A stretch of DNA of 51,620 nucleotides, taken from IMG/VR virus record IMGVR_UViG_3300021373_001502, positions 1-51,620 of that record, one strand, 5' to 3'. A model generated the notes under the pieces. The model saw only the letters and a program-made list of their open reading frames with translations, ran no database searches and was not told where the DNA came from. Each line of letters starts with the position of its first letter. The first letter of the stretch is position 1. A program made the position numbers and the translations under genes. The stretch comes from a virus. Of this stretch, positions 27,227-50,111 are shown piece after piece.

Positions 27227-28152
27227 TGCCAGTATCATCCGGAAACCAAATACTTGCAACTGATTTTAACGATCTAAGTTCTCTAATCACTACTACATTA
27301 GGAACTGGTGCAGGCCAATATGGATACGGACAAGCAATTGTAAGCGGAACTGTTACCGCAGGTCAAAGAATTGAAAAGCAAGAGTTTGATAAGTTAAGAT
27401 TCGACTTAATGAGTGTGCTTATACATCAGACAGGTGTTTTACCTAGTCCAGTATTTGCACAAGTTACTAATCCTATCCTTGCTACAGCATCTGAACCTTT
27501 TCAAAGTTATACGAATTTAATACAAGCAGCAAGATCAGATCGATTTGTTGTTTCGCAAAAGAACCAATCAGTAGTAAGCATTGATACAAAAACTTGTAAC
27601 ACGTGGAGTGGTTTAGCATTTACAGAATTAGAAATGACGTTTACAACTGCTGATGATGCTAGATTCTTTTGGAACTCAGGTAGCAGAATAAGAATAGATA
27701 CAAACTTGAGAGCAGGTTATCCTTCAACACAACAAAACAATGACTGGAACACAATACTTGATGCTTCAGAAAATATTGAATTTGGTGCAAATGCACAGAC
27801 TACAGGTCCAGGTGGCGGCGTACCAATTAATGTATATGATTTAACAAACGCATATCAAACTTTTTATGAGTACACTTCATCAGCACCATATGCTGCAAAC
27901 AGATACAAATTATCAGCAAAATGTAATCAACCATCAAACTTAACAGGTGTAGCAAATGTGTTTACACTTAAAATAGAATTAATTGATGATTATACTGATG
28001 ATCCACAACCAGGACCACTACCAGATGACGAAGTATTTGGAGTTGAAGTAGAATGTCAACACGTTAAAGTAAGTGGTGTATTACAACCTGATGGTGATCC
28101 TTGGATTTTACCTACGCCAACTTTTAATATGTCGAACATTACAGCGACTTAA
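27226..28152 (+). CDS. Virion structural protein, first of a paralogous pair
   Basis: A 308-aa protein with no enzyme motif. The N-terminal part has YGYGQAIVSGTVTAGQRIEK and an LRFDLMSVLIHQTG segment that align with YLGYGQPVLSSQVSTSN and LRYDIWNAWNHLN of the next gene. The centre of both has an ARFFWNSGSRIRI / RHFFNSGSSIDI strand followed by a Trp-containing QNNDWNTILDA / QNTSWTSILNS segment. They are therefore tandem duplicates. Position after the fibres and before the glycosyltransferase cassette suggests a tail or fibre-associated component. The start overlaps the preceding stop (TAATG). Confidence 0.65.
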   Translation: MPVSSGNQILATDFNDLSSLITTTLGTGAGQYGYGQAIVSGTVTAGQRIEKQEFDKLRFDLMSVLIHQTGVLPSPVFAQVTNPILATASEPFQSYTNLIQAARSDRFVVSQKNQSVVSIDTKTCNTWSGLAFTELEMTFTTADDARFFWNSGSRIRIDTNLRAGYPSTQQNNDWNTILDASENIEFGANAQTTGPGGGVPINVYDLTNAYQTFYEYTSSAPYAANRYKLSAKCNQPSNLTGVANVFTLKIELIDDYTDDPQPGPLPDDEVFGVEVECQHVKVSGVLQPDGDPWILPTPTFNMSNITAT

Positions 28153-28172
28153 ATAGTGTAAGAGGTAAATGA

Positions 28173-29216
28173 ATGCCAGCAACACACGACTTAATAGATC
28201 CGGATTATTATAATGATATGCAACTTAAGATACAGCGTGTCTTGGGTGATGGTATCACTGATGGTTTTGGATATCTTGGTTATGGACAACCTGTCTTAAG
28301 TTCGCAAGTAAGCACAAGTAATAAAGTTACTGTAGAACAATACAGCAATCTAAGATATGATATTTGGAATGCCTGGAATCATTTAAACAATGCTCTTCCA
28401 AGTGGTTCGAATGAAGTCAATATGCTTGAAGTTACAGAGCGTAAAAAAATTAGATATCAAGCACCTGCATCAGGCGGCCCTTCAATGCCAGTTGATAAAT
28501 GGGGTGCATTTGTAAACAGCATTTACTCAAATGCAAGAAATTTAGCAGTAGCAGGACAGAGAAGAACTGTTAACCACGGCTCATCATCACTTACTTGGCC
28601 AAATGCAACATATGGAGATAACTGGAGCGATTCAGTAATTTGTAGTGTATTTGTTTTGTTTAGTAGTTTAGATGATTCAAGACATTTCTTTAACAGCGGT
28701 AGTAGCATTGATATTACTTCAACACGTACAGGCGGATCAGTAACAAATCAAAACACAAGTTGGACAAGTATACTGAATAGTGCAGGTACACAAAAATTTA
28801 GTGGCAATCATCCTGCCACAGGATCAGGACCTACATTTACAGGCGGAAACTTTTACAAGTGTACAAGTACTTTTCAACAACCATATGTTGACGTAGTAGG
28901 TAGCAGTCCATATAGTCTAAATAGATATAGAATATTTGCAAGAACACCTAACCAAGCAAACCCACATCTTACAGGCGCAGACACGATTGAGTTCCGTGTT
29001 GAATTCATAGATGATCACGAGGAACAAGGTGGTCCACCAGCAGTAGGTCCATCAAACCCAGGTGATGGCGGTTTTGGTCCTGACGTTGTAGACGGACAAA
29101 TCACGGTTACTGTACAAACAACTGAAGCAACTGGTACTTTACAGCCAGGCGGAGCAGGGTCATTTGATATTGCTACACCTATTGTAAACATTGGTCAAGT
29201 TGTAGAAGTTAGTTAA
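28173..29216 (+). CDS. Virion structural protein, second of a paralogous pair
   Basis: A 347-aa paralogue of the preceding protein, sharing the GYGQP N-terminal motif, the FFNSGSSIDI strand and the SPYSLNRYRI / APYAANRYKL segment. The C-terminus is richer in Gly and Pro (GGPPAVGPSNPGDGGFGPD) and ends in a short beta-like segment. An AAGAGGT ribosome site sits just before the ATG. It is the last gene of the structural block, and is followed by a 76-base gap with a candidate late promoter. Confidence 0.65.
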   Translation: MPATHDLIDPDYYNDMQLKIQRVLGDGITDGFGYLGYGQPVLSSQVSTSNKVTVEQYSNLRYDIWNAWNHLNNALPSGSNEVNMLEVTERKKIRYQAPASGGPSMPVDKWGAFVNSIYSNARNLAVAGQRRTVNHGSSSLTWPNATYGDNWSDSVICSVFVLFSSLDDSRHFFNSGSSIDITSTRTGGSVTNQNTSWTSILNSAGTQKFSGNHPATGSGPTFTGGNFYKCTSTFQQPYVDVVGSSPYSLNRYRIFARTPNQANPHLTGADTIEFRVEFIDDHEEQGGPPAVGPSNPGDGGFGPDVVDGQITVTVQTTEATGTLQPGGAGSFDIATPIVNIGQVVEVS

Positions 29217-29249: not shown

Positions 29250-29279
29250 TAATGTACCAATAAATATATGCGTACATTA
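29250..29279 (+). promoter_or_regulatory. Inverted repeat enclosing a candidate late promoter
   Basis: A perfect 8-base inverted repeat (TAATGTAC at 29250-29257 and GTACATTA at 29272-29279) encloses CAATAAATATATGC. The loop holds AATAAATA (29259-29266), the same core as the candidate late promoters at 18074 and 25414. It lies in the only gap of more than 50 bases between 18 and 40 kb and immediately precedes the AAAGGAG ribosome site of the first gene of the cassette. It may be a promoter with an operator-like palindrome, or a 5' hairpin. Confidence 0.5.
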
Positions 29280-29292
29280 TAAAGGAGTTATT

Positions 29293-29640
29293 ATGCAAAA
29301 TGAATATAAAGATGCTTTAGAATTCTCAAAGTATCGTCAAACACTTTCTGTTCAACGCAAAACACTTAAAGAAAAAATTGAAGCCAGACTTACATATGGT
29401 AAAAATGGTGGAATCTTTAAGATTGATAGAGATTTGTTAAACTTTGTCGAAATGTTAATTTACAAAGACAGATCAGAAAATGCTGTAATTTTAGATGTAA
29501 ATGAAAATCCAATTTTAGTTGAAAACTTAGTTGAATTTAGAGATGAAATTTTCGATAGGTATTTTAGTGCAACTTTTGAATATCACGAAGAATATCAAAA
29601 AATTAAGAAAAGTAGATCAGTAGAGACATTAGTATCGTGA
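29293..29640 (+). CDS. Conserved small phage protein of unknown function
   Basis: A 115-aa charged protein with no recognised enzyme motif. It is rich in Lys, Glu and Arg and probably helical at both ends. The middle holds GGIFKIDRDLLNFVEMLI and then ILDVNENPILVENLVEFRDE, a pattern I associate with hypothetical proteins of marine T4-like phages. A good AAAGGAG ribosome site precedes the ATG. Its stop overlaps the GTG of the next gene (GTGA), so it heads the cassette operon. Function unknown. Confidence 0.6.
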   Translation: MQNEYKDALEFSKYRQTLSVQRKTLKEKIEARLTYGKNGGIFKIDRDLLNFVEMLIYKDRSENAVILDVNENPILVENLVEFRDEIFDRYFSATFEYHEEYQKIKKSRSVETLVS

Positions 29641-30488
29641 AAAAAGGTGTAGTAATATTTGCACACAATAACAGGCAGATAGATTACGCAAAAATGGCAC
29701 TTGCGTCAGGCGGTCTTGCTAAAAAACATCTAGGTGTTCCTGTTAGTTTAATTACAGATCAGTCAACAGTTGACTGGCTAAAAGAATCTAATCTTTGGGA
29801 TAAAGCACTACAAACTTTTGAACAGATTATTGATGTAGAACGTCCTGCAGATTTACAACAGCGTAAGTTTAAAGACGGCAAAGAAAGTGTTACTGCTCCA
29901 TTTAAAAATAGTAATAGGTCCAGTGTTTGGGATCTTACTCCTTATGATAGAACGTTAATGATAGATTGTGATTACTTTATTTTTTCAGATGCACTAAATG
30001 AATACTGGGAATGTGAAAGTGATATACTTATTAGTACAAAGTACAACGATGTGCAAGGAAATAGAATAGGATACCTTGACAAATACATAAGTGATACAGG
30101 TGTAAGACTGTTATGGGCGACAACAGTTATGTTTACAAAAAATGAAAATACAAAAGTATTTTTTGAACTAGTAAAACATATTAAAGACAATTATAAAAAG
30201 TTTGCAGACATTTTTAGATTTGATAACAGAATGTATAGAAATGATATTTCGTTTGGTATTGCAAGGCATATACTTTATGGTTTTGAAACTGATAATGATT
30301 ATGCAATGCCACCTGTGCTTTCAGTGCCGGATATGGATTTAGTTTATGATGTCAATGAAAACGGAATCCAATTGCTGACATCTAATGCAAATGATTATAC
30401 ACTATGTAATATTAAAGACAGAGATATTCATATAATGAATAAACAAGCAATAACAAGACACATTGATAAGTTTATGGAGTTAGTATGA
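29637..30488 (+). CDS. GT-A-type glycosyltransferase (cassette gene 1)
   Basis: A 283-aa putative nucleotide-sugar-dependent glycosyltransferase. The N-terminus (GVVIFAHNNRQIDYAKMALA) suits a Rossmann-like GT-A fold. Residues 104-116 read DRTLMIDCDYFIF, with Asp110-Cys-Asp112 as the DxD metal/nucleotide site, preceded by the usual strand of GT8-like enzymes. The start is GTG, sharing four bases with the upstream stop (GTGA). Its own stop overlaps the next ATG (ATGA). The acceptor and donor cannot be told from the sequence. Confidence 0.6.
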   Translation: MKKGVVIFAHNNRQIDYAKMALASGGLAKKHLGVPVSLITDQSTVDWLKESNLWDKALQTFEQIIDVERPADLQQRKFKDGKESVTAPFKNSNRSSVWDLTPYDRTLMIDCDYFIFSDALNEYWECESDILISTKYNDVQGNRIGYLDKYISDTGVRLLWATTVMFTKNENTKVFFELVKHIKDNYKKFADIFRFDNRMYRNDISFGIARHILYGFETDNDYAMPPVLSVPDMDLVYDVNENGIQLLTSNANDYTLCNIKDRDIHIMNKQAITRHIDKFMELV

Positions 30489-31330
30489 TAGACTTTGGAT
30501 ATCTAATTATTGTAAATGAAGGTGCAGACACAAACTACACACGTCTTGCATATGCACTTGCACTAAGCATAAAAAATACACAAAAAGAAGGTTATGATAA
30601 AGTTGCTTTAGTCATTGACGATAAACAACATATAGAAAACTTTACATCAACTTGGGTATTCGATCACGTAATTGAATATCAAGGTCCAGAAGGTTGGGAT
30701 AGTAGATCCTATATGGATCAGGTTACACCATTTGAACATACTGTATGCTTGGACGCAGATATGTTATTCTTTAGGGACTACAGCCATTGGGCAGAATATT
30801 TTATTGCAAACAGTGAATTATATGTAGCAAACAAAGCATATACTTACAGAGGCGAACTTGTTGTAAGCGATCATTATAGAAAATGTTTTACAATGAATAA
30901 TTTACCTAACCTATATAGTTTTTACACATTCTTTAAAAAGGATAGTGTATTAGCAAAAGAGTTTTTTGATTTACAACGTGCTATTATTAAAAATCCTGAA
31001 AGATATAGTAATGAATTTTTAATTTCGCACAAACCTAAAGTTGTAGGAACAGATGAAGCATTTGCTCTTGCAGCAAACATTTTAGATATTGCGGACGACA
31101 TTGCATATCCTTTAGAGTTTCCCCGTGTTGTTCATATGAAAGGTATGATACAGAATTGGCCTTATCCTGCAGATACAGTTAGTGATCACGTAGGTTTTTA
31201 CTTTGATAGAAATGCTAAAGTAAAGATAGGTAACTTTCAACAAACAGATATTTTACACTATGTTGAAAAAGATAAAATAACACTAGAAACAATTAACATA
31301 TTGGAGGAAATAGCGTGGAAGAAAAGATAA
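30485..31330 (+). CDS. GT-A-type glycosyltransferase (cassette gene 2)
   Basis: A 281-aa protein distantly similar in layout to the preceding one. It starts FGYLIIVNEGADTNYTRLAY and has HTVCLDADMLFFRDY at 85-99, with Asp90-Ala-Asp92 as the DxD site. The later part (TDEAFALAANIL and VVHMKGMIQNWP) fits the acceptor half of GT8-like enzymes, where a conserved His near the C-terminus helps metal binding. GGAG sits upstream of the ATG. Its end overlaps the next GTG start by 16 bases. Confidence 0.6.
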   Translation: MIDFGYLIIVNEGADTNYTRLAYALALSIKNTQKEGYDKVALVIDDKQHIENFTSTWVFDHVIEYQGPEGWDSRSYMDQVTPFEHTVCLDADMLFFRDYSHWAEYFIANSELYVANKAYTYRGELVVSDHYRKCFTMNNLPNLYSFYTFFKKDSVLAKEFFDLQRAIIKNPERYSNEFLISHKPKVVGTDEAFALAANILDIADDIAYPLEFPRVVHMKGMIQNWPYPADTVSDHVGFYFDRNAKVKIGNFQQTDILHYVEKDKITLETINILEEIAWKKR

Positions 31331-31959
31331 GAGATATTCCAGACCTTCCAGACTTTGACGAATGGATTGCAAATTATAAACCGCCTGTAGTAAACTATCT
31401 AGCAGCATTTGATCAGGAAACAGGAAAAGTATTATGTGTAGGTCCTGATTATTCAATTGACAAAGAGCGTTTCAAGAAAACTATTAGCATTGATTCAGAT
31501 ACTGCATTGGCTATCATTGAAGGCGAAATCAAAATGAATAAATGTTTCGTAGATGTTCAGTCAGGTAGTTTAGAAATTACAGAAGTACAAAATTTATTTA
31601 AAATAGATGATGTACTACATAGAATTGTTAATATTAAATGGGCTGAAATAGATGAACCTGATGTGATTGTATCACGAAAGGGAGATACATTTACAGTTCA
31701 ACTATCTGAAAAATATGGCGGAACATATAAACTAAACAGCGACACGCCAATAGCAACAAGAAAAATATTCTGGGACGGAGAAACAATTTTAAATTTTGAT
31801 ATATGCGATTACAATGATCCTCATACAAGTTATTATACAGCAAGTGTAAGACTAGAAGATCTAGTAGGAAAAAGTTTTAATTTTACTTGTGATAGTCCAG
31901 ATGACGCCAGTGTGTTTACACGCAGGTTATTTAAAAATTATGTATTTGAGGAACTATGA
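31315..31959 (+). CDS. Unrecognised protein in the glycan cassette
   Basis: A 214-aa protein that I do not recognise. It starts with GTG, supported by the strong TTGGAGGAAA site upstream. The N-terminus is acidic (RDIPDLPDFDEWIANYKPP). The next part (NYLAAFDQETGKVLCVGPDY) reads like a short beta-hairpin, and the second half is beta-rich. It is 16 bases overlapped with the preceding glycosyltransferase and four with the next, so it is likely a partner of the cassette rather than a stray gene. No catalytic motif is evident. Confidence 0.55.
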   Translation: MEEKIRDIPDLPDFDEWIANYKPPVVNYLAAFDQETGKVLCVGPDYSIDKERFKKTISIDSDTALAIIEGEIKMNKCFVDVQSGSLEITEVQNLFKIDDVLHRIVNIKWAEIDEPDVIVSRKGDTFTVQLSEKYGGTYKLNSDTPIATRKIFWDGETILNFDICDYNDPHTSYYTASVRLEDLVGKSFNFTCDSPDDASVFTRRLFKNYVFEEL

Positions 31960-32861
31960 CAAAAGTAGTAGAGTTTGATGTATTCTTTTTAAGTTATGAT
32001 GAGCCGAATGCTGATCTACACTATGCTGACCTGTGTAACAAAGTTCCGTGGGCACAGCGCATACACGGAGTTAAAGGATCAGACCACGCACACAAAGCAG
32101 CAGCAGAAGCCTCTGAAACAGATTGGGTGCTAACTGTAGATGCAGATAATATTGTTGATCCTAAGTTTTTCGATTTAGACTTAGATATGACAGATGAAAA
32201 AATACGTGCATACAGTTGGTGCGGCAGAAACAATGTTAACGGATTGCGTTATGGCAACGGCGGCTTAAAGTTATGGCACCGTCAGCATATTCTTGATATG
32301 AAAACACACGAAAACGCAGACAGTGAAAGAGCGCAAGTTGACTTTTGTTGGGAAGAAGGTTATAGGAACTTTCCAGTTACTTTTAGTGATACAATTATAA
32401 ATGAGACACCTTTTATGGCTTGGCGTGCCGGCTTCCGTGAAGGTGTGAAGATGACATTAGATGGCGGCTTACAAGTTCCGCCTATGGAGATCGAAGAGCG
32501 TATATGGTGGCATAACTTACATAGGTTAAGAATATGGAGTACAGTTGGTACACACATTGAAAATGGTTTGTGGGCAATCTACGGTGCAAGACTAGGAACG
32601 TATCTAACAAATTGTACTGATTGGGATCATATACAAGTAAGAGATTTTGAATTGCTACGTGAATTGTACAACGAGCAATGTAAGCAATATGAGGACGGAT
32701 TTGGATTAGAACAAGAAACAAAAAGACTAGGCACAGAGATAAGACATAACTTAGGACTAGAATGGCCTGATCTTGATCCACAACAAAGTAGATATGTAAT
32801 GGCACTTTATGAGGAAACTATTAGGTTAGGTACAACTTATTATAGTAAAAAGTATGTATGA
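31956..32861 (+). CDS. GT-A-type glycosyltransferase-like protein (cassette gene 4)
   Basis: A 301-aa protein starting VEFDVFFLSYDEPNADLHYA. Residues 56-65 (DWVLTVDADN) hold a DxD site (Asp62-Ala-Asp64). Downstream come SWCGRNNVNGLRYGNGGLKL and then WRAGFREGVKM, and IYGARLGTY. The next gene contains the same series of motifs (YDVAFISYHEPNAEV, IVDADAEI, VWRGRNPITDLEYGYGGVKL, WKSAFRECCKL, IQGARAGRKYG), so the two are paralogues. It is linked to its neighbours by ATGA and eight-base overlaps. The nucleotide-sugar type is unknown. Confidence 0.6.
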   Translation: MTKVVEFDVFFLSYDEPNADLHYADLCNKVPWAQRIHGVKGSDHAHKAAAEASETDWVLTVDADNIVDPKFFDLDLDMTDEKIRAYSWCGRNNVNGLRYGNGGLKLWHRQHILDMKTHENADSERAQVDFCWEEGYRNFPVTFSDTIINETPFMAWRAGFREGVKMTLDGGLQVPPMEIEERIWWHNLHRLRIWSTVGTHIENGLWAIYGARLGTYLTNCTDWDHIQVRDFELLRELYNEQCKQYEDGFGLEQETKRLGTEIRHNLGLEWPDLDPQQSRYVMALYEETIRLGTTYYSKKYV

Positions 32862-33909
32862 TATTTTTTTTATTAGCAATGGAGAGTGTAATAGCAATGC
32901 TTGGACACAGTTCAAGCAAAAGTTTCCTAACGCACAAAAAATAGATAATTGTAAAACTTTCGAACAAGTATCTCAACGAAGTTTAACAAAACACTTCTGG
33001 GTAGTATGGGATAATTTACTACTACAACAAGATTTTAATTTAGATTACCGTGTTCCTGAATGGGATGCAGATTATGTACACGTATTCCGCAATGGAAAAT
33101 ACTATGACGGTGTATGTATTTTTCCTAAGAAAGCACGTATTCTACAACGTGAATGGGATTATAGATTCTTTACTAACAAAAAAGAAATAGATATACAAGC
33201 AAGTAAGCCTATACAGTATGATGTTGCATTTATTTCATATCACGAACCTAATGCAGAAGTAAATTACAACAAGTTATTAAAGAAAGCACCTAATGCTGTA
33301 TGGATAAAAGACGTAACAGGCATACATCAAGCACATATAGAAGCAGCAAAACAATGTAATACTGAACTATTTTACATTGTTGACGCTGATGCAGAGATTT
33401 TAGACGAATTTAATTTTAATATGCAAATACCTTACTATGATTTCAATGCTAGGAAAAGCGTATATGTATGGAGAGGTAGAAATCCCATTACAGATTTAGA
33501 ATACGGGTATGGCGGTGTTAAGTTATTTCCGCGACAAACTACAATTGATATGGATGTAAACAGTCCGGATATGACTACTAGCCTTTCTGACAGTTTTAAA
33601 GCAATGCAAGAAGTAAGTAACATTACAGCATTCAATACAGACGGATTTAGTACTTGGAAAAGTGCGTTTAGAGAGTGTTGTAAATTAGCAAGTAGAACTA
33701 TTAAAGGTCAAAAAGATGATGAAACAGATGAAAGACTTAGTAAATGGTGTAGTGATTATGGCAGAGACAGACCGTTTGGGGACTATGCTATTCAAGGCGC
33801 CAGAGCCGGTAGGAAATATGGTGTTAGCAATAGTGCTGAGCCTGATGCATTACGCAAGATAAACGATTTTAAATGGCTACGGGAGCAGTTTGATGCACGA
33901 CAAGGATAG
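32854..33909 (+). CDS. Two-part glycosyltransferase-like protein, paralogue of the previous gene
   Basis: A 351-aa protein. Residues from about 122 to the end repeat the motif series of the preceding gene, including the DxD site Asp177-Ala-Asp179. The first 110 residues (YDIFFISNGECNSNAWTQFK, then FWVVWDNLLLQQDFNLDYRV) look like a second, degenerate copy of the N-terminal half of the same fold: similar hydrophobic strands and an LTKHFWVVWDN in place of a DxD. It is thus probably an internal duplication with one active domain. The gene starts inside the previous one (eight-base overlap) and overlaps the next by 17 bases. Confidence 0.6.
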   Translation: MYDIFFISNGECNSNAWTQFKQKFPNAQKIDNCKTFEQVSQRSLTKHFWVVWDNLLLQQDFNLDYRVPEWDADYVHVFRNGKYYDGVCIFPKKARILQREWDYRFFTNKKEIDIQASKPIQYDVAFISYHEPNAEVNYNKLLKKAPNAVWIKDVTGIHQAHIEAAKQCNTELFYIVDADAEILDEFNFNMQIPYYDFNARKSVYVWRGRNPITDLEYGYGGVKLFPRQTTIDMDVNSPDMTTSLSDSFKAMQEVSNITAFNTDGFSTWKSAFRECCKLASRTIKGQKDDETDERLSKWCSDYGRDRPFGDYAIQGARAGRKYGVSNSAEPDALRKINDFKWLREQFDARQG

Positions 33910-35260
33910 AATAGAGAAATTTATTCCTATTATGGACGAAATCTCTCCTACATTCTGTATGGCTAAGTGGCATCATACTACTATCTATTTGCAAACAGGA
34001 GAGACTCATAGTTGTTACCATCCTGCACCGCATAAGATTCCGTTAGAAGGACTTAAAGAGAATCCAAGCCAACTACATAATACTCCGCAAAAGAAACAAG
34101 AACGCCAGCAAATGATAAATGGTGAAAAGCCTAGCGGATGTCAGTATTGTTGGAACATTGAATGTATGGGTAAGGATTACATTTCAGATAGAAAAGAACG
34201 TAATGCAAGTATACACACAGAAGAAAGATTTGCTGCTATTAAAAAAGATCCTATGGCAGATGTAAATCCACAGTATGTAGAAATAAGTTTTGGTAATGAA
34301 TGCAATTTTAAGTGTGGTTATTGTCATCCTAAACACAGTAGCACATATCATAAAGAAATAAGAGATCACGGACCTTACACTATGGTTAAGAACCATCGCA
34401 ATGATATTGATTGGTTTAAAATTCATAAAGAAGAAGATAATCCTTATGTAAAAGCATTTTGGGAATGGTGGCCTGAACTGCGTAAGACACTTACTATTTT
34501 ACGTATCACAGGCGGCGAACCATTATTACAGCAAAGCACTTGGCGTATGTTTGAAGAACTAGAAAAGAATCCTATGCCTAATTTAGAATTAAACATTAAT
34601 AGTAACTTTGGTGTTAAAAGTATATTGATAGAACGTTTTGCAGACAAAGTAAACAGCCTTATAGCAAAAGGTTGCATAAAAGATTTCAAAGTTTTCACAA
34701 GTATGGATACTTGGGGAGAACAAGCAGAATATATTCGTACAGGATTAGATTTAGAGTTATGGGAAAAGAATTTTGATATCTATATGACTAAAACAAATCA
34801 CCCATTAACATTTATGGTTACATTTAATATTTTAACTGTTACAAATTTTGATAAGTTCTTAAGAAAAGTATTAGAATGGCGTAAGAAATATAACACAGAC
34901 GATCAAACAAAATGGCAACGTATTAGATTTGATACGCCTTATTTAAAAGAACCTTTACAGTATGATATGAATATACTTCCTAAAGAAGAATTTATGCCCT
35001 ATATGAAACGACACTTACAGTTTATTGCAGACCAAGTGGACGATGCAGATAGATATAAATTTAGTATTATGGAATATGAAAAGTTTAGACGTGTAGTTGA
35101 CTATATGTCTAGCACAGAATATACTGCACAAAAAATTACAGAAGGTCGCAGAGATTTTGCTGCTTGGTTTAGAGAATATGATAGAAGACGAAATGTAGAC
35201 TTCAGAAAAACTTTTCCAGACCTTATAGATTTTTATGAGGACTGTTGTGGCTTGGTATGA
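33893..35260 (+). CDS. Radical SAM protein with N-terminal cysteine (twitch-like) cluster (cassette)
   Basis: A 455-aa protein. The radical SAM [4Fe-4S] motif CxxxCxxC is at Cys137, Cys141 and Cys144 (NECNFKCGYC), followed by a RITGGEPLL motif. Before it lie Cys22, Cys41, Cys83, Cys86 and Cys91 (GCQYCWNIEC), which look like an auxiliary cluster site of the SPASM/twitch type placed at the N-terminus. The start ATG at 33893 has GGGAG upstream; an adjacent TTG would only add one residue. The gene is sandwiched between a glycosyltransferase and an SGNH-like gene, with overlaps on both sides. Radical SAM enzymes with auxiliary clusters commonly modify peptides or carry out radical sugar chemistry; the reaction here is unknown. 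Confidence 0.75.
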   Translation: MHDKDRIEKFIPIMDEISPTFCMAKWHHTTIYLQTGETHSCYHPAPHKIPLEGLKENPSQLHNTPQKKQERQQMINGEKPSGCQYCWNIECMGKDYISDRKERNASIHTEERFAAIKKDPMADVNPQYVEISFGNECNFKCGYCHPKHSSTYHKEIRDHGPYTMVKNHRNDIDWFKIHKEEDNPYVKAFWEWWPELRKTLTILRITGGEPLLQQSTWRMFEELEKNPMPNLELNINSNFGVKSILIERFADKVNSLIAKGCIKDFKVFTSMDTWGEQAEYIRTGLDLELWEKNFDIYMTKTNHPLTFMVTFNILTVTNFDKFLRKVLEWRKKYNTDDQTKWQRIRFDTPYLKEPLQYDMNILPKEEFMPYMKRHLQFIADQVDDADRYKFSIMEYEKFRRVVDYMSSTEYTAQKITEGRRDFAAWFREYDRRRNVDFRKTFPDLIDFYEDCCGLV

Positions 35261-36179
35261 TTCGGAACTAAAGGCAGATGAAGCACACGGGTTGATGCAC
35301 AGCATTAACAAAGTGTTAATCCGTGACGACTGTTATAGGCCTAAGCACATTAAAGTTCCGGCACAATATGCTGAGTTATGGGCTAAAAGAAATAAAAAGA
35401 ATTTACTTTTAAATATAGGCGAAAGTTGGACTTACGGAGAAGGACTACAAGATATTGCAACAGCAATAGGCCAGTTTGATTTAGGAAGTATGTTAAGACA
35501 TAGTTTTGGTGCAAGACTTGCAAATATGTTGGACACAGACTTTTATCAATATGCTGTTCCGGGTAACAGTAATTTAGCAATGTCGCATACACTAAAACGT
35601 ATCCTTAAAGAACTTGATACAAGTAAGTATGAAAAAATTTATCTGTGCTTTCAAGTTACAGAACCTAGCAGAGAAATGCAACAATTAAATGAACTTGTAC
35701 AATGGAATCACCCACTAAAAAATTTATATGATAAAAAATATCTTGCTGAAAAAAAGTTAGATTTACAACAATGGTTAGAAAAATATGACTCTTATTTGTA
35801 CAGTTACATTGATGACATCGTAAGCAATTACACTAACGTAAACACTGTAGTATGGAAAAACTTCTGTTGTACTAACACAACAAGCCAATATAATTTTAAA
35901 ATAATCGATGAGAGTTGGATACAGTTTAGTGCTAAAACAAATGGATACAAAATTAATATGCCAAGTTTTTATAATGCAGGTTGGCTTGATGATTTAATGA
36001 GGGATTACAAAGAAATTAGTTTTAAACACAAGTACATTGGAAAGCAATTAAAAGTTATAGAACAGTCTAACAAATACTTAGGAAGTTGTCCAGATCATAG
36101 ACCTCATCCTAGAGAAGTACAGCACAGTCTATGGGCAACAAACATATATCACAAATCAGGATGGGCTAATGAACAATAA
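35247..36179 (+). CDS. SGNH/GDSL hydrolase-like protein 1
   Basis: A protein of about 310 aa with SGNH-fold hallmarks: NIGESWTYGEGL in the place of block I (catalytic Ser in GES), AVPGNSNLAMSH as block II, and near the C-terminus PDHRPHPREVQHS, which could supply the Asp/His of block V. SGNH enzymes are esterases or acyl-transfer enzymes, often acting on acetylated glycans. The frame opens with ATG at 35235, but GAGGA followed at the usual distance by GTG at 35247 is the better start; the choice is uncertain. It overlaps the radical SAM genes on both sides. Confidence 0.6.
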   Translation: MAWYDSELKADEAHGLMHSINKVLIRDDCYRPKHIKVPAQYAELWAKRNKKNLLLNIGESWTYGEGLQDIATAIGQFDLGSMLRHSFGARLANMLDTDFYQYAVPGNSNLAMSHTLKRILKELDTSKYEKIYLCFQVTEPSREMQQLNELVQWNHPLKNLYDKKYLAEKKLDLQQWLEKYDSYLYSYIDDIVSNYTNVNTVVWKNFCCTNTTSQYNFKIIDESWIQFSAKTNGYKINMPSFYNAGWLDDLMRDYKEISFKHKYIGKQLKVIEQSNKYLGSCPDHRPHPREVQHSLWATNIYHKSGWANEQ

Positions 36180-37356
36180 AACATTTTGCATTTATCCTTG
36201 GATCCATATGTATGTCAATCCAGACGGAAGTGTTTTACCTTGTTGCGTAGGTGAGTACGATAAGCATCTTGGTAATGTAAGAGAAAATACAATTCAAGAA
36301 ATATGGAATAATGACAAGTACAAAACCCTAAGACGTAATATGCTAGAGGGTAAAAAATGTGTAGAATGTAAGGCTTGTTATCAACAAGAAGATAGTGGCA
36401 ACGAAAGTACACGTATAAGCAAAAACAAAGAGTTTGCACATTTAATGCCATTAGTGCAAAATACATTACAAGACGGAACATATCCTGAAATGACATTGCG
36501 TCATTTTGATGTAAGATGGAGTAATATTTGTAATTTTAAATGTAGAAGTTGTTCTAGCACATATTCTAGCACGTGGGCTCAAGAAGACAGTCGTAATGGT
36601 AAACATAAAGAAATATTCATTATGGCGGATGGAGATGATAACAGTCGATTATACGAACAGTTTCAACCTTACTTTAAAGACATAGAAAGTTTTTATTTTG
36701 CAGGCGGCGAGCCTTTAATGACAGATAAACATTATGCTATACTAGAGCATTTGATCGAAACTAAAAATACAGATGTAAAAATAAGTTACAATACAAATAT
36801 TAGTAACCTACATTACAAAAATAAAAGTGTTATTGAATTATGGAAAAACTTTCCTAACATACAAGTATTTGCTAGTTTAGATCATTACGGAGATAGAGCA
36901 GAATACATTAGAGAAGGAACTAATTGGAGCAAAATAGAAAAGAATATTAGATTAATTAAGCAAGAAACACCGCACGTAAGACTTAATTTTAGTGCAGTGA
37001 TAAGTGCATTTAATGTTTTTACAGTTACAGACTTTTTAGATTATGTATTAGCAGAAGGATTATTTGAAACAAATGTATATCCAACATTTTATAACATTGT
37101 TCACCCAGAGTACTACAGTGCAAGTATTTTAAATGATATGCTAAAATGGAGTGTAATTAATAAAATTAAAGCAAAGGCACACAAATACAATGCACACGTA
37201 CAAGGACTTTTGAGAGATGTAGTAAGACATTTAGAAAACAGTGAATATGATGAAAACTTAAAGGAACAATTTATAGTACATACAGATTACTATGATAAAA
37301 TAAGAAATAGAAACTTTTTAAAAACGTTTCCTGAACTAAAGGAAATAATGGAATGA
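36169..37356 (+). CDS. Radical SAM protein with N-terminal twitch/SPASM-like domain 2
   Basis: A 395-aa protein. The N-terminus (CIYPWIHMYVNPDGSVLPCC, residues 7-26; then GNV...EIWN, RRNML and Cys64, Cys67, Cys70) is a textbook SPASM/twitch-like iron-sulfur module, but it sits before the radical SAM core. The core motif is Cys121, Cys125 and Cys128 (NICNFKCRSC), followed by FAGGEPLM. In most SPASM enzymes the extra cluster domain is C-terminal, so this is a permuted layout, which also occurs in the first radical SAM gene of this cassette. Translationally linked by overlap to the SGNH-like gene before it and by ATGA to the following one. Confidence 0.8.
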   Translation: MNNKTFCIYPWIHMYVNPDGSVLPCCVGEYDKHLGNVRENTIQEIWNNDKYKTLRRNMLEGKKCVECKACYQQEDSGNESTRISKNKEFAHLMPLVQNTLQDGTYPEMTLRHFDVRWSNICNFKCRSCSSTYSSTWAQEDSRNGKHKEIFIMADGDDNSRLYEQFQPYFKDIESFYFAGGEPLMTDKHYAILEHLIETKNTDVKISYNTNISNLHYKNKSVIELWKNFPNIQVFASLDHYGDRAEYIREGTNWSKIEKNIRLIKQETPHVRLNFSAVISAFNVFTVTDFLDYVLAEGLFETNVYPTFYNIVHPEYYSASILNDMLKWSVINKIKAKAHKYNAHVQGLLRDVVRHLENSEYDENLKEQFIVHTDYYDKIRNRNFLKTFPELKEIME

Positions 37357-38591
37357 AAATATACTTCGATAATCTAGAACTAGATAAATCTAACCTAAGC
37401 CAGTTTGAAACAAAAGATAATAACACCTGGTGGTTAACAAGTCCAGGTAGTATTTTGAAAAGAGAACTGAAGAATATGAATGTTGAATATCATAAACTTT
37501 CAGACTGGAACGAATGTGGTCTATACTTTATAGATGTAAATGGCGATCCTAATTGGTGGTCAGGACAAAATAACGGAACAGGACCTAAGCACATATTACA
37601 AATGGTTCCTAGAGATATTTTAGAGTTAGTAAAAGCAAAGAAACTTAGACTTGTTATACTTGCAGACAAAGAAGGCGGCCCTATGAAAACTAATCATTTT
37701 GACGCTTTCAGAGCAACTACTGACATTATGCGTGAACGCAAGTATCCTAAAAACAGTGTGTTAATTTTACAAGGCAATACTAAAATCCAAGATCAATATG
37801 CACAGTGGAGAGATCAGTTTTTAGAAGATAAATGGTTTGATGTACAATATAGCAATCACTTCGGTAAGATATTCTTTGATGACAAGATGCCTACAGTTCC
37901 TTGCTTATACAGTGCTATGCAAAATGCGGATAGCAAAGACTTTAACAGTTTGAATAGAGTATACAGACCACACAGAGGTGCGCATTTACATTATCTTGCA
38001 AAAAATAATTTATTAGAAAAAGGTATGGTAAGTTGTAATCAAGTTAAACAAAGTGATATACTAGGTTCAAGACTTGCCGGTGTAAACATTAACGAGTTTG
38101 ATCAAGTTATGCAAGAGCATTATCCTTTGTACTTAGATGGTAATTGGGAAAGCACTAATGCTGCTTGGAACTACAATAAAGATTTATATCAAAACACATT
38201 ACTAACAGTAATTACAGAAACTATTTTTATTGATAACACAAGTTTTGTTACAGAAAAAATATTTAAACCTATTGCTTTAGGCCATCCTTTTATACTAATT
38301 GCAGGTAGCGGCACAATAAAAGGTTTAGAAGAATTAGGATTTAAATGTGACTTCTTAGGATTCGGCACAGAATACGATAGTATTGAAGATCCTAAAACAC
38401 GTTTAGAAGAAGTACACAATATACTAGAAAATTGGATAGCACTTGATCGAGATGAAAAATTAAAAAGAATAGGTGCAAGTTTTCCTAACATAATGCACAA
38501 CTGGGAACATATTCGTAAATCAAGTTTTTATCACGATGCATTACATAGTGCAATAGCAAAAGGCAAGGAGTATTTTAATGAAGCAATTTAG
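37353..38591 (+). CDS. GT10/fucosyltransferase-like C-terminal motif protein 1
   Basis: A 412-aa protein. The C-terminal third has TVITETIFIDNTSFVTEKIF, followed by LGHPFIL (residues 287 onward; FVTEK at 298-302). That resembles the nucleotide-binding signature of GT10 fucosyltransferases (Y/F-V-T-E-K-I ... P). The N-terminal two thirds are not recognisable. The gene at 39360 has the same signature, so the two form a family. Starts with ATG sharing four bases with the preceding stop. Confidence 0.55.
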   Translation: MKIYFDNLELDKSNLSQFETKDNNTWWLTSPGSILKRELKNMNVEYHKLSDWNECGLYFIDVNGDPNWWSGQNNGTGPKHILQMVPRDILELVKAKKLRLVILADKEGGPMKTNHFDAFRATTDIMRERKYPKNSVLILQGNTKIQDQYAQWRDQFLEDKWFDVQYSNHFGKIFFDDKMPTVPCLYSAMQNADSKDFNSLNRVYRPHRGAHLHYLAKNNLLEKGMVSCNQVKQSDILGSRLAGVNINEFDQVMQEHYPLYLDGNWESTNAAWNYNKDLYQNTLLTVITETIFIDNTSFVTEKIFKPIALGHPFILIAGSGTIKGLEELGFKCDFLGFGTEYDSIEDPKTRLEEVHNILENWIALDRDEKLKRIGASFPNIMHNWEHIRKSSFYHDALHSAIAKGKEYFNEAI

Positions 38592-39360
38592 TAAAGAGTA
38601 TAAAAGATTTTTTGCCTTTGGGTGTAGTATGACAAATTACTTTTGGCCTACGTGGGCTGATATTATAGGTATTGAGATTCCAGATTATTACAACTATGGC
38701 AAAAGTGGTGCAGGCAATATGTTTATTAGTAATAGTATTGTTGAAGCAAATAAGAAGCACAAGTTCACACAAAACGATCTTGTAGTTGTTATGTGGAGCA
38801 GTATTTCTAGAGAAGATAGATATAAAAATAGAAATTGGATCACACCAGGAAACATTTATACACAAAATGAAATTGATACTAAGTTTGTATACGAATGGTC
38901 AGATAGCAGATTTTATTTAATACGTGATCTTGCAACCATTGAACTTACATCTAGTTACTTAGATTCATTACCTTGTGACAGCAAAATGTTAGCAATGAGT
39001 CCTTTAATAGAATTACAAATAAGCGGTACGTATACAAAACCTGCAGAAGAATGGCATACAGGAGTACTAGACTTTTATAGTGATACTGTAAACAAAATTG
39101 CTGAACCAATTGTTACAAATGTTTACAATGGCACTTGGCCACAAACACCTATCCGTGGACACAATGGTAAAGGACAAACAGCAGATTATCATCCTACACC
39201 ATTAGGACACGCAGAGTATGTTAGTAATATGTTTACAGATTTTGAGTTCACAGAACAAATGAGAAACTTTGCAGCAAGTATGGATGAAAAAGTACATATG
39301 TGCAAAACACTAGATGACACTAATAAGTTTTGGCAACAAAGGCATCAGACTAGATTATAA
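38578..39360 (+). CDS. SGNH/GDSL hydrolase-like protein 2
   Basis: A 260-aa protein with FFAFGCSMTNYFWPTWADII near the N-terminus. Gly15-Cys-Ser17 matches block I with Cys in place of Asp (GDS to GCS) and Ser17 as candidate nucleophile. The NYGKSGAGN segment matches block II, and ADYHPTPLGH near residue 203 matches block V (D-x-H-P). Fold membership is likely; activity on acylated sugars is a guess from its glycosyltransferase neighbours. An AAGGAG site lies inside the previous gene, which it overlaps by 14 bases. Its stop overlaps the next start by one base. Confidence 0.65.
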   Translation: MKQFSKEYKRFFAFGCSMTNYFWPTWADIIGIEIPDYYNYGKSGAGNMFISNSIVEANKKHKFTQNDLVVVMWSSISREDRYKNRNWITPGNIYTQNEIDTKFVYEWSDSRFYLIRDLATIELTSSYLDSLPCDSKMLAMSPLIELQISGTYTKPAEEWHTGVLDFYSDTVNKIAEPIVTNVYNGTWPQTPIRGHNGKGQTADYHPTPLGHAEYVSNMFTDFEFTEQMRNFAASMDEKVHMCKTLDDTNKFWQQRHQTRL

Positions 39361-40517
39361 TGGCGTGTTTAAATTCAACCAACTTAATTTATTTGCAAAC
39401 TTACAATCCACGTGAGCCGCAAAAAATTAAAATTAATAGCAGTGTAGGTTCTCAACTAAAAACAAACGAGAACATAGATTTTTTCTATATACAATTTTCT
39501 GATAAAGAAAGTTTTAAAATTTACAGTATTGATGCTATTGTACCTGCAAATGATTTAGATAAAATTAAACAAGGAAATGCTTTTTTAGTTTTAGATAACG
39601 CTTTAGAGTATTTTACAGATACTGTGGATAGCATTTATAGAAACATAGTGCTTAAACATAAAGTACCAGCAGAACAAATTATATTTTTAAGTGCTGTGCC
39701 AAATATGATTGATACAGTGAAGTCTGTAGCAGAAAAATATAATGCACCACAGATTAAGTTAGATTACTTTAATGTATTTGAAGCAACAGGTATAGATACA
39801 ATACACAAGAATCAAAATATAATCGGTATCACAAAAACAAAGAAATGGCCAAAGAAGTTTTTATGTCTTAATAGAAGATGGCGATCTCACCGTCCTCTAA
39901 TGATGTTAATGTTATATGAAAAAAATTTACTTGACAAAGGACATATAAGTTTTGGCAAAAGTGATAGAGGTGATAATTGGCGTAGTTCGTTTAGAGAACT
40001 AAGGCACATTTATAAGGATAATAAATTTATAAATGACTTAATAGAACGTAATAAAGAAATTGTAAACTTACCTGATCTTTATTTAGATACAAACGATCTT
40101 GTAACTAACAGGGCAGAATATGAATCAAGCATTTTAAAATTTTACAAAGAAACTTATTTTAGTGTAGTAAATGAAACAACTTATCACGAAGGTATTCCTT
40201 TTTTCAGTGAAAAAATTTTTAAAGTAATAGCAATTGGACATCCGTTTGTTTTATCTACAGTACCTAATAGTTTACCTATTTTACGTAAATTAGGATACAA
40301 GACATTTAGTCCTTATATTGACGAAACATACGACAGCATACAAGATGACGGAGAACGTATGATTGCAATAGTTAATGAAATTGAACGTCTAAGCAATTTG
40401 GACAAAGCAGAAACTTTACAGTTTATTGCTAATGTAAGGCCTATTTTGGCACACAATTATAGTGTGCTTGTAGCAAAGAAAAACAAGTGGAATATTAGTA
40501 CTAGAGTTAATTATTAA
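39360..40517 (+). CDS. GT10/fucosyltransferase-like C-terminal motif protein 2
   Basis: A 385-aa paralogue, by motif, of the gene at 37353. The C-terminal part has VVNETTYHEGIPFFSEKIFK (FSEK at 282-285), followed by IGHPFVL and a conserved GYKTF/YDSI segment matching the GF..YDSI segment of the other copy. The middle (KKFLCLNRRWRSHRPLMMLM) matches the equivalent HR-containing part of the other copy (LNRVYRPHRGAHLHYL). It is the last gene of the uninterrupted overlap chain. After its stop comes the structured 144-base gap. Confidence 0.5.
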   Translation: MACLNSTNLIYLQTYNPREPQKIKINSSVGSQLKTNENIDFFYIQFSDKESFKIYSIDAIVPANDLDKIKQGNAFLVLDNALEYFTDTVDSIYRNIVLKHKVPAEQIIFLSAVPNMIDTVKSVAEKYNAPQIKLDYFNVFEATGIDTIHKNQNIIGITKTKKWPKKFLCLNRRWRSHRPLMMLMLYEKNLLDKGHISFGKSDRGDNWRSSFRELRHIYKDNKFINDLIERNKEIVNLPDLYLDTNDLVTNRAEYESSILKFYKETYFSVVNETTYHEGIPFFSEKIFKVIAIGHPFVLSTVPNSLPILRKLGYKTFSPYIDETYDSIQDDGERMIAIVNEIERLSNLDKAETLQFIANVRPILAHNYSVLVAKKNKWNISTRVNY

Positions 40518-40661
40518 GGCGCCTTAAACGCATTTTAAGCGTCATACAGCGGTGTTTATATACAAAGAGCAATAGTTACGCTATCGTGCTTTAAACCACG
40601 TTTAAATGCGCTGTAAGAAGGAGATTGTAAATATGAGTGTACCAAAATTGGGAGAAGTAGA
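40518..40661 (+). promoter_or_regulatory. Structured 144-base gap before the sugar dehydrogenase gene
   Basis: This is the longest gap between genes in the window. It begins in a perfect 14-base palindrome, TTAAGGCGCCTTAA (40514-40527), spanning the preceding stop. A short ACGC/GCGT hairpin sits at 40528-40542, and a distant 7-base inverted repeat joins TACAGCG (40545-40551) to CGCTGTA (40609-40615). Near the end, an AAGGAG-preceded 10-codon frame leads into the next gene. No sigma-70 promoter was recognised with confidence. It could be a regulatory leader, a promoter region, or a terminator of the upstream operon; there is no U-tract. Confidence 0.4.
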
Positions 40662-40665
40662 GTGA
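40633..40665 (+). CDS. Candidate 10-aa leader peptide (MSVPKLGEVE)
   Basis: ATG at 40633, preceded by AAGGAGATTGTAAAT, reads ten codons to a TGA that overlaps the GTG start of the sugar dehydrogenase (GTGA). The arrangement is that of a translational coupling or leader peptide, since the GTG start would be re-initiated by the terminating ribosome. It is too short to judge by conservation here. Confidence 0.4.
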   Translation: MSVPKLGEVE

Positions 40666-41849
40666 AGATAGGATTTATAGGTTTAGGTAAATTGGGTTTG
40701 CCTTGTGCAGAAGTAATTGCCAAAAAAGGACATAGTGTTTTAGGATACGATATTGATAAGCGTATAGACAGCGATTATGTTATTGTAGAAGATACTATTG
40801 AAGAAGCAGTAAAGGACAGAGAAATTGTTTTTATTGCAGTGCCTACACCACACGATCCAGACTATGATGGAAGAGCACCTACAGCACACTTAGAGCCAAA
40901 AGATTTTTCATATGATATTGTAAAAGAAGTTATGGCTGAAGCAAACAAGCATATGAATAAAGATCAATTGCTTGTGCTAATCAGCACAGTATTGCCTGGT
41001 ACAGTGCGCAGAGAGTTTGTACAATTAGTAACTAATCCTAGATTCGTTTACAATCCATACCTAATTGCAATGGGTACAGTTGCTTGGGATATGGTCAATC
41101 CAGAAATGGTAATGATTGGAACAGAAGATGGAACTGAAACAGGCGATGCAGCAGAACTAAAAACTTTCTATGAAATGATTATGGATAACTTTCCACGTTA
41201 TGTAATTGGTACGTGGGACGAATGTGAATGCATAAAAGTTTTCTATAATACATTTATAAGCACAAAAATAGGACTTGTTAATATGATACAAGACGTTGCA
41301 CAGCGTCAAGGTAATATTAATACAGATGTAGTTACTACTGCTTTAGCAGAAAGCACACAACGTATTATGGGACCTAGTTATATGAAAGCAGGTATGGGCG
41401 ATGGCGGAGCGTGTCATCCAAGAGATAATATTGCGTTACGATATATGGCTAAAAAATTAGAACTTGGTTATGATATTTTTGATAGCATTATGAATGCACG
41501 TGAAGTACAAGCAAAAAATCTTGCTGAAAAACTTTGTGAAATAGCAAAGAAAAATGAATTGCCTATCTTGATAAATGGCATTGCATATAAACCTGGAGTA
41601 CCATATATAGATGGTAGTTATGCATTGTTAGTAGCACACTATTGTAATAAATTTGGATTCAATCCTATGAAAGTAGACCCATTAGTATATGGAGAAGATC
41701 CAGGACCTTTTAGAGCAGTTGTTCTTCTTGCTCATCCAACAATGTATGTAAGAGTAACTGATGATTCAGTTGTGGTTGATCCTTGGAGAGAATATACTTC
41801 CAAGTTACATCAAGTTATACATTACGGTAATACTAGAGAATTGATCTAG
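40662..41849 (+). CDS. UDP-glucose/GDP-mannose-type nucleotide-sugar dehydrogenase
   Basis: A 395-aa enzyme of the UDP-glucose/GDP-mannose 6-dehydrogenase family. These enzymes oxidise the C6 alcohol of a nucleotide sugar to a carboxylate in two NAD-dependent steps, or oxidise related sugars. Residues 2-14 (KIGFIGLGKLGLP) are the NAD-binding Rossmann start. FYNTFISTKIGLVN fits the conserved Lys/Asn helix. GMGDGGACHPRDN carries Cys251 in place of the catalytic Cys in the GFGGxCxxKD motif. The GTG start is coupled to the leader peptide and has GGGAGAA nearby. Which sugar it acts on is unknown. It may supply donors to the cassette transferases. Confidence 0.8.
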   Translation: MKIGFIGLGKLGLPCAEVIAKKGHSVLGYDIDKRIDSDYVIVEDTIEEAVKDREIVFIAVPTPHDPDYDGRAPTAHLEPKDFSYDIVKEVMAEANKHMNKDQLLVLISTVLPGTVRREFVQLVTNPRFVYNPYLIAMGTVAWDMVNPEMVMIGTEDGTETGDAAELKTFYEMIMDNFPRYVIGTWDECECIKVFYNTFISTKIGLVNMIQDVAQRQGNINTDVVTTALAESTQRIMGPSYMKAGMGDGGACHPRDNIALRYMAKKLELGYDIFDSIMNAREVQAKNLAEKLCEIAKKNELPILINGIAYKPGVPYIDGSYALLVAHYCNKFGFNPMKVDPLVYGEDPGPFRAVVLLAHPTMYVRVTDDSVVVDPWREYTSKLHQVIHYGNTRELI

Positions 41850-50102: not shown

Positions 50103-50111
50103 AATTACTCC

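What the first reader, a model, noticed from the sequence alone, without database searches (positions are those of the whole stretch)
29293..41849. Coupled cassette of glycosyltransferases, radical SAM enzymes and SGNH hydrolases
Seen: eleven genes from 29293 to 40517 overlapping end to start, followed by a sugar dehydrogenase. Contents: four DxD transferases, two permuted twitch/SPASM radical SAM proteins, two SGNH-like proteins, two GT10-like proteins and one unknown. The interleaved order (transferase, radical SAM, SGNH, radical SAM, GT10-like, SGNH, GT10-like) suggests one pathway. Hypotheses: it decorates the virion (fibres, the gp6 Ser tail), remodels host surface sugars after infection, or installs a radical-made modification on a peptide or glycan. 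No precursor peptide gene was found.
Basis: partly seen in the sequence, partly recalled or inferred. Interest (0 to 1): 0.85.

Follow-up and report, generated by a model that had tools for sequence, protein, structure and literature searches.

The report
Fibre-linked sugar-decorating operon in uncultured phages
Next to its tail-fibre genes this uncultured large phage carries a tightly packed twelve-gene operon that looks built to assemble and chemically remodel a sugar chain, with a seven-gene core kept and an end swapped among its relatives, so these phages probably repaint either their own fibres or the surface of their host.

Summary
Four families are duplicated: g2/g3 (glycogenin-related, GT8-type), g5/g6 (GT2-like), g7/g9 (N_Twi_rSAM radical SAM, above cut-off) and g10/g12 (GT-B fold; 'GT10' unproven). 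SGNH rests on motifs.

Among 75 non-redundant contigs with at least four core genes, the core g1-g7 keeps its order (57/57, 67/68, 67/72, 70/70, 69/73, 60/64 per junction), and a fibre-type gene lies directly upstream in 53 of 53 testable. What follows g7 varies: radical SAM arrays, SGNH, GT-B, nucleotide-sugar enzymes, oxygenase. g5 and g3 match 0 of 50,697 phage records.

TAAATA lies before g1 in 49 of 53 gaps (4.8 expected); the other four have sigma-70-type promoters.

Best reading: a cytosolic glycan-assembly island, more likely for fibres or virion than for the host envelope, but undecided. A peptide substrate is disfavoured; the gp6 serine tail is rejected as general acceptor (7 of 74).

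The parts
27226..29216 (+). two tail-fibre-type genes (fibB 27226-28152, fibC 28173-29216), cluster c1
   Evidence: cluster c1 (single linkage) lies directly upstream of g1 in 53 of 53 testable contigs; no meaningful Pfam match and no PHROG match; 'fibre' is inferred from position after collar and fibre genes
29261..29266 (+). TAAATA box, late-promoter-like, 32 nt before the ATG of g1
   Evidence: same box in 49 of 53 homologous gaps, 41 of them 32-35 nt before the start, 4.8 expected by shuffling; promoter role inferred
29293..29640 (+). g1, 115 aa, unknown, core
   Evidence: alignment A12; no Pfam or PHROG match
29637..30488 (+). g2, GT8-type glycosyltransferase, core
   Evidence: profile of 16 g2/g3 relatives matches glycogenin, E 8e-6, positions 16-123; D110 and D112 invariant
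30485..31330 (+). g3, GT8-type glycosyltransferase, paralogue of g2, core
31315..31959 (+). g4, 214 aa, unknown, beta-rich, core
   Evidence: alignment A10; model pLDDT 83, pTM 0.57; best PDB Z 4.8 over the C-terminal part
31956..32861 (+). g5, GT2-like glycosyltransferase (VDAD), core
   Evidence: (below cut-off)
32854..33909 (+). g6, GT2-like glycosyltransferase with one extra N-terminal module; 0-8 extra modules in relatives; core
33890..35260 (+). g7, N_Twi_rSAM radical SAM protein, core
   Evidence: NF033640 321 bits; CX3CX2C and N-terminal Cys invariant in 13 of 13 rows; dN/dS 0.02 against L005
35235..36179 (+). g8, SGNH-like protein, variable module
   Evidence: G62-E63-S64, N111, H288, H291 invariant in 8 of 8 rows; seen in 7 of 75 core contigs, many of which end before this site
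36169..37356 (+). g9, N_Twi_rSAM radical SAM protein
   Evidence: NF033640 392 bits; Pfam SPASM 1.2e-16 at residues 7-70
37353..38591 (+). g10, GT-B-fold glycosyltransferase
   Evidence: model pLDDT 71.7, pTM 0.75; best Z 13.7 to 7mi0, 295 residues, 4.4 A
38578..39360 (+). g11, second SGNH-like protein
   Evidence: G15-C16-S17, G44, H205-P206 invariant, D203 nearly, in 16 rows
39360..40517 (+). g12, paralogue of g10
40662..41849 (+). g13, UDP-glucose/GDP-mannose dehydrogenase

Best explanation
A phage-encoded glycan-assembly island. A conserved core (two GT8-type and two GT2-like transferases, one N_Twi radical SAM enzyme, two small partner proteins g1 and g4) starts and builds a short sugar chain in the cytosol. 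An exchangeable end tailors and extends it: radical SAM enzymes oxidise, deoxygenate or epimerise sugar carbons, SGNH-like proteins add or remove acyl groups, GT-B transferases extend, and sugar dehydrogenases supply activated sugars such as UDP-glucuronate. The acceptor is most likely a virion protein, best the fibre-type proteins encoded immediately upstream, made at the same late time in the main clade. SHOWN: gene order, families as listed, linkage to the upstream genes, purifying selection, variable end, promoter-like words. INFERRED: enzyme chemistry, the acceptor, the late timing, the purpose (receptor specificity or shielding).
For: Core order in 75 non-redundant contigs, overlaps mostly conserved (contigs chosen for having at least four core genes). 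A c1 fibre-type gene directly upstream in 53 of 53, and c2 and c1 relatives upstream in 7 of 7 distant MAG-binned loci, two of which look like copies. g1 lies 25.7-30.3 kb from gp6 in 14 of 22 gp6-bearing records; the other 8 end 12.2-26.6 kb from gp6 (my arithmetic); 0 of 4 isolate relatives have it. Sugar-nucleotide and tailoring enzymes in the swapped end. The radical SAM profile matches BtrN in PDB over the twitch region, E 5e-10, though 8vpo ranks first at 5e-12 (BtrN's sugar-like cyclitol substrate is recalled). TAAATA before g1 in 49 of 53 gaps; in the + strand part of the window (1-41849) 6 of 9 TAAATA copies lie within 45 nt before a gene start, those of gp6 and two fibre-type genes among them. 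No membrane-type segment (19-mer mean hydropathy >= 1.6) in g1-g13, and in 11 of 671 ORFs from the cassette start onwards in the core contigs, so no flippase or membrane-bound initiating transferase is evident; this suits a cytosolic protein acceptor.
Against: No acceptor was identified and no glycan seen. In 4 of 53 gaps, and at 6 of 7 MAG-binned loci, the box is replaced by a sigma-70-type promoter, while in each of the four a fibre-type gene keeps TAAATA: there the cassette is not timed with the fibres. fibB can diverge (66% identity in L011) while g1-g7 stay at 80-93%. Most contigs belong to one lineage, so the linkage is not many independent events. Soluble transferases also serve LPS pathways. 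GT-B relatives occur without the core in 38 of 45 distant loci, and g5/g6 relatives occur without g1-g3 in a few genome contigs (L214, L216, L220).
Confidence: 0.45

Rival explanations
1. Host-envelope remodelling: the cassette changes host LPS or capsule sugars during infection so that rival phages, or the released progeny, no longer bind; it sits by the fibres because fibres and receptor sugars co-evolve.
For: Sigma-70-type promoters in the divergent contigs suit early or constitutive action. The authors of PMC7029224 favour O-chain modification for the analogous fibre-side clusters of pelagimyophages (passages read). Relatives of g13 lie among sugar genes in Synechococcus phage Bellamy and Pelagibacter phage HTVC008M.
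Against: No membrane-type segment in g1-g13, so initiation and flipping would need host proteins. Late-type box in the main clade.
Confidence: 0.33
2. Nucleotide or DNA hypermodification: the transferases act on modified bases, like T4 alpha- and beta-glucosyltransferase.
For: T4 AGT and BGT are among the structural matches of g10 (Z 11.6-12.2). QueE-like and GTP cyclohydrolase genes lie in the same window.
Against: Those matches are within 1 Z of many other GT-B enzymes. The Que-type genes are on the other strand, outside the cassette. Fibre linkage and nucleotide-sugar enzymes are unexplained.
Confidence: 0.06
3. A radical SAM peptide-modification (RiPP-like) system with glycosylation.
For: SPASM/twitch proteins often modify peptides (general knowledge).
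Against: No precursor-like ORF among g1-g13; g1 and g4 are conserved proteins of other character; the swapped end is sugar metabolism. A weak test: very small precursors could be missed.
Confidence: 0.05
4. An insertion hotspot beside the fibres that collects unrelated auxiliary genes; no joint pathway.
For: The part after g7 is highly variable, with oxygenase and B12-radical SAM genes, and one contig has a halogenase gene inside the core.
Against: The core is nearly invariant in order and under purifying selection.
Confidence: 0.08

Closest known systems
Host recognition cluster of pelagimyophages (PMC7029224; passages read)
   Same: fibre-side variable island with glycosyltransferases, GT8 the most represented family, and radical SAM gene cassettes
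   Different: no match for g5/g6 or the GT-B family in Pelagibacter phage HTVC008M (no positive control inside these calls, though A2 rang); the passages read describe no invariant seven-gene core; here the carrier's gp6 is nearest to large isolates such as Phosso and SCTP-2
Moraphages (PMC12619734; abstract, introduction, part of methods, pan-genomics section and passages read)
   Same: uncultured aquatic large phages with four glycosyltransferase orthogroups in the core genome; virion glycosylation is among the roles discussed
   Different: no word 'radical' in the main text; whether their four orthogroups are g2, g3, g5, g6 could not be tested, as those contigs are not held here
Virion glycosylation of mycobacteriophages (Freeman et al. 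2023; not held, known from its citation in PMC12619734)
   Same: phage virion proteins that carry glycans
   Different: capsid and tail-tube C-termini; nothing about radical SAM or SGNH tailoring in what I saw
Radical SAM genes of Vibrio phages K566 and KVP40
   Same: relatives of g9, three radical SAM genes close together in K566
   Different: no g5/g6, GT-B or g11-type match in either (no positive control inside these calls)

Membership tests
NCBIfam NF033640 N_Twi_rSAM (g7, g9) | whole-protein score above the curated cut-off 170 | tested here: met
   321 and 392 bits
NCBIfam NF033640 N_Twi_rSAM (g7, g9) | CX3CX2C plus N-terminal cysteines of a permuted twitch domain | tested here: met
   C23, C42, C84, C87, C138, C142, C145 invariant in 13 of 13 rows
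GT8 (g2, g3) | sequence relation to GT8 enzymes and DxD | tested here: met
   glycogenin E 8e-6, positions 16-123 only; D110/D112 invariant; that glycogenin is GT8 is recalled
GT8 (g2, g3) | Pfam match of the single proteins | tested here: not met
   0 families for either
GT2 (g5, g6) | Pfam GT2 above cut-off | tested here: not met
   best 16.2 bits, cut-off 27.5
GT2 (g5, g6) | D-A-D motif | tested here: met
   V61 D62 A63 D64 invariant in 8 rows
GT10 (g10, g12) | Pfam GT10 sequence match | tested here: not met
   0 of 28 members match a glycosyltransferase family at E <= 0.1
GT10 (g10, g12) | structural match to a GT10 enzyme | tested here: inconclusive
   GT-B fold; only 50 entries are listed, Z 11.3-13.7
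GT-B fold glycosyltransferase (g10) | fold | tested here: met
   Z 13.7 over 295 residues at 4.4 A; the 50 rows listed are glycosyltransferases or related sugar synthases; moderate model, pLDDT 71.7
SGNH hydrolases (g8, g11) | blocks I, III and V (Ser, Gly/Asn, Asp-x-x-His) | tested here: inconclusive
   Ser and His blocks invariant; Asp spacing atypical (D203-x-H205 in g11; Asp not conserved in g8); Asn not invariant in g11
SGNH hydrolases (g8, g11) | match to an SGNH/GDSL Pfam family or PDB chain | tested here: inconclusive
   none found; fold not predicted
UDP-glucose dehydrogenase (g13) | Pfam N-terminal and central domains above cut-off | tested here: met
   71.6 and 60.6 bits; C-terminal domain 21.7, below its cut-off of 30; substrate not testable
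Phage virion-glycosylation system | glycan on a virion protein | not testable with these tools
   needs mass spectrometry of virions

The most novel reading that the evidence does not exclude
A phage glyco-serotype machine: a fixed core that primes a glycan on tail-fibre proteins and an exchangeable cassette of radical SAM, acyl and sugar enzymes that gives each phage population its own radical-modified fibre glycan, with timing switched between late and sigma-70 promoters among clades, and with g6 as a transferase carrying a variable ladder of 0-8 extra modules.
Probability: 0.3. Interest if true: 0.82.

Novelty: new variant of a known kind. Interest (0 to 1): 0.62.

Why it matters
It would also offer a substrate class for N_Twi_rSAM-type proteins, whose relatives (by profile A6) stand in arrays in many Bdellovibrionota contigs.

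Tried and rejected
gp6 serine tail as acceptor: of 74 gp6 homologues with a complete C-terminus (70 IMG/VR, some near-identical, and 4 isolates), 7 have an S/T-rich tail (>= 20 of 30), so it cannot be the general acceptor.

T4 late promoter TATAAATA: 0 copies in the window where 8.8 are expected. The shorter TAAATA was found by looking at the gaps and counted afterwards, so it was chosen on the data it was counted in. Controls: mononucleotide shuffles (4.8), and the 60 nt before the other core genes (g2 0/59, g3 0/69, g4 1/67, g5 1/74, g6 0/73, g7 5/80); before g13 it is present in 14 of 21. Some window copies overlap a TAA stop codon. In L056 a TAAATA lies within 80 nt of g1 but outside the gap. 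An inverted repeat before g1 in the window is not general: 28 of 53 gaps have some 7-nt repeat (5.7 expected), but the sequences differ.

Correlation of g6 module number with radical SAM gene number: Spearman 0.49, p 0.02, n 22; relatedness not removed, so not used.

g4: no informative PDB match (best Z 4.8); in BFVD three uncharacterised or unnamed viral proteins at E < 1e-6. g8 against g11 by profile: no relation shown. g2/g3 against g5/g6: none shown. No GT10 chain was recognised among the 50 rows for g10, which excludes nothing. Ten neighbours of radical SAM genes in three Bdellovibrionota and one Paenibacillus contig: mixed, no clear pathway.

A slip found on checking: one search compares fibB with L009 at 34%, but L009 starts inside fibC, so that row is fibB against its paralogue and is not used.

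Host: not determined. MAG bins of core-bearing contigs disagree (Rhodobacteraceae, Betaproteobacteria, Rickettsiales, Pelagibacter, Verrucomicrobia), so I read them as mis-binned phage contigs. No tRNA and no Rfam match at gathering score in the window.
Full report
WHAT IS THERE. The window is a 51,620-base IMG/VR virus record. It reads as a fragment of a large myophage: a gp6-type baseplate wedge (458-4057; PHROG 10646), a 4673-aa protein, collar and fibre genes, then the cassette, then a minus-strand block with exonuclease, QueE-like and GTP cyclohydrolase genes. Among 61 phage records with a gp6 match, the 20 listed are at 32-36% identity, led by Sinorhizobium phage Phosso and Salicola phage SCTP-2. 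The cassette has 12 genes, 29293-40517, every junction overlapping, then UDP-glucose-dehydrogenase-like g13.

FAMILIES. HMMs built from the window and up to three relatives show four duplicated families: g2/g3, g5/g6, g7/g9, g10/g12. g7 and g9 are N_Twi_rSAM above cut-off, with CX3CX2C and N-terminal cysteines invariant in 13 of 13 rows. A profile of 16 g2/g3 relatives matches glycogenin, E 8e-6. g5/g6 match GT2 below cut-off. g10 was modelled from an alignment of 28 rows (pLDDT 71.7, pTM 0.75): GT-B fold, best Z 13.7 to 7mi0 (295 residues, 4.4 A), then adhesin transferase GtfC 13.4, TarM 12.8 and T4 AGT 12.2. 'GT10' is not supported by Pfam (0 of 28). g8 and g11 carry SGNH-like blocks but no SGNH database match. 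g1 and g4 are unknown; g4 is beta-rich (pLDDT 83).

DOES IT TRAVEL TOGETHER. Loci were fetched with g9 (16 loci), g10 (3), the g10/g12 profile (78 loci from the best 80 of 423 confirmed) and the g5/g6 profile (80 of 564 confirmed). With a stretch of the window and four annotated phage stretches these made 177 loci; 115 remained after removing those sharing 400 identical bases; 75 of the 115 carry at least four core genes, among them a contig of the window's own population (L020). The adjacency counts are conditional on that choice. Adjacent over testable: g1-g2 57/57, g2-g3 67/68, g3-g4 67/72, g4-g5 70/70, g5-g6 69/73, g6-g7 60/64; overlapping stop/start in 50, 67, 67, 65, 69 and 60 of these. 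The 14 non-adjacent cases lie in six contigs: a halogenase gene inserted (L137), an apparently split g3 (L155), and a divergent group in which g4 is diverged or replaced and g6 moved (L056, L057, L073, L077). Upstream of g1 is always cluster c1 (53 of 53; 4 more at contig ends). After g7 the content varies: cluster g8 has 7 members, g11 25, up to five radical SAM genes in a row, epimerase/dehydratase (c15), 2OG-Fe oxygenase (c20), DegT-type aminotransferase, B12-radical SAM. Against this: of the 45 more distant loci of the GT-B search (L054-L098, not de-duplicated, many cut) only 7 have the core, so the end modules also live elsewhere.

LINEAGE. All 22 gp6-bearing IMG/VR records of at least 26.8 kb among the 80 were searched: 14 have g1, 25.7-30.3 kb from the gp6 start (28.8 kb in the window). 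The other 8 end 12.2-26.6 kb from gp6, seven of them before the nearest observed site and one (G013, 26.6 kb) inside the range, hence uninformative. Four isolate relatives, searched whole, match neither g1 nor g5/g6 (distances are my arithmetic). g5, g3 and g10 have no match in 50,697 phage records at E <= 1e-5; g7 only weak ones in two Vibrio phages. Seven MAG-binned loci with core genes (L221 and L222 look like copies) have c2 and c1 relatives upstream.

SELECTION. dN/dS for g1-g13 is 0.02-0.20 against L005 and L009; g5, g7 and g9 are the lowest (0.02-0.06), g8 the highest in both (0.19-0.20). fibB and fibC are at 0.10 and 0.14 against L005. dS is already above 1 for several genes against L009, and higher or saturated for more distant loci, which I do not use.

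PROMOTERS. The gap before g1 is 54-78 nt in all but two of 53 contigs. TAAATA occurs in 49 of 53 gaps, 41 of them 32-35 nt before the start; shuffles give 4.8. The same word precedes gp6 and fibre-type genes in the window (some copies overlap a stop codon TAA). The four exceptions have TTGACA-17-TATAAT (12 of 12, two loci) or TTGACA-17-TATACT (11 of 12, two loci); of the other 49, 2 reach 10 of 12. Of seven MAG-binned loci, six have a 10-11 of 12 match within 100 nt and one has TAAATA. So the cassette seems late-timed in the main clade and host-polymerase-timed in others. This is inference from consensus words.

MECHANISM. Most likely: the core primes and builds a sugar chain in the cytosol; radical SAM, SGNH-like and GT-B proteins tailor it; g13 and the swapped nucleotide-sugar genes supply donors. 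Sugar use is supported by the gene set. Radical chemistry on sugars is inferred from the neighbours and from the match of the twitch region to BtrN (BtrN's cyclitol substrate is recalled; viperin, MoaA and a peptide maturase also match the core). NeoN, which converts neomycin C to B, is a precedent (PMC10991966, search listing with start of abstract). Virion acceptor: favoured by the immediate, deep fibre linkage, the late-type box and the lack of membrane-type segments. Host envelope: favoured by sigma-70-type promoters in the divergent contigs and by the view of PMC7029224.

A NEW DETAIL. g6 is modular: its N-terminal ~105-residue module recurs; among 76 non-redundant relatives (some truncated) the profile finds 1 to 9 modules. 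The terminal module carries DxD in 72 of 73; inner modules do by the same crude test in 48 of 126, while 38 read as W-D. That inner modules are degenerate is inferred.

NOVELTY. The kind is known: pelagimyophages carry fibre-side islands with GT8 transferases and radical SAM cassettes (PMC7029224, passages), and moraphages have four core transferase orthogroups (PMC12619734, sections read). Searches for radical SAM + glycosyltransferase + phage + fibre, jumbo phage + radical SAM + glycosyltransferases (none), virion glycosylation, SGNH + radical SAM and 'twitch domain-containing radical SAM' listed no title that describes this core; only the two papers named were opened. Hence: new variant of a known kind.

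Noticed in passing
window 32854-33909; L056:14964-18134, L127, L138: g6 homologues carry 1 to 9 tandem ~105-residue modules, the inner ones apparently degenerate copies of a transferase half; one extra module in the window.
   Followed up: partly
L056, L057, L073, L077 before g1; also L180-L182, L184, L221, L222: sigma-70-type promoters stand where the main clade has a TAAATA box.
   Followed up: partly
window 458-4057, C-terminus: gp6 ends in a run of 17 consecutive serines inside a longer Ser/Thr/Gly tail; such tails are sporadic, 7 of 74.
   Followed up: yes
window 40634-40666: a 10-codon ORF (ATG to TGA) after a ribosome-binding-like AAGGAG overlaps the GTG start of g13, perhaps a leader ORF.
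   Followed up: no
L137:7070-8542: tryptophan-halogenase family gene (PF04820, 290 bits) inserted between g2 and g3.
   Followed up: no
L183, L189, L194, L203 and other L178-L247: arrays of up to eight ORFs matching the radical SAM profile A6 in genome contigs, very often Bdellovibrionota.
   Followed up: partly
window 46137-50801, minus strand: QueE-like radical SAM, HIT, phosphoribosyltransferase, HhH-GPD and GTP cyclohydrolase I genes, a possible nucleotide-modification set.
   Followed up: no
whole window: TATAAATA is absent (0; 8.8 expected from dinucleotide shuffles); stop-codon and codon-usage constraints may explain it.
   Followed up: no
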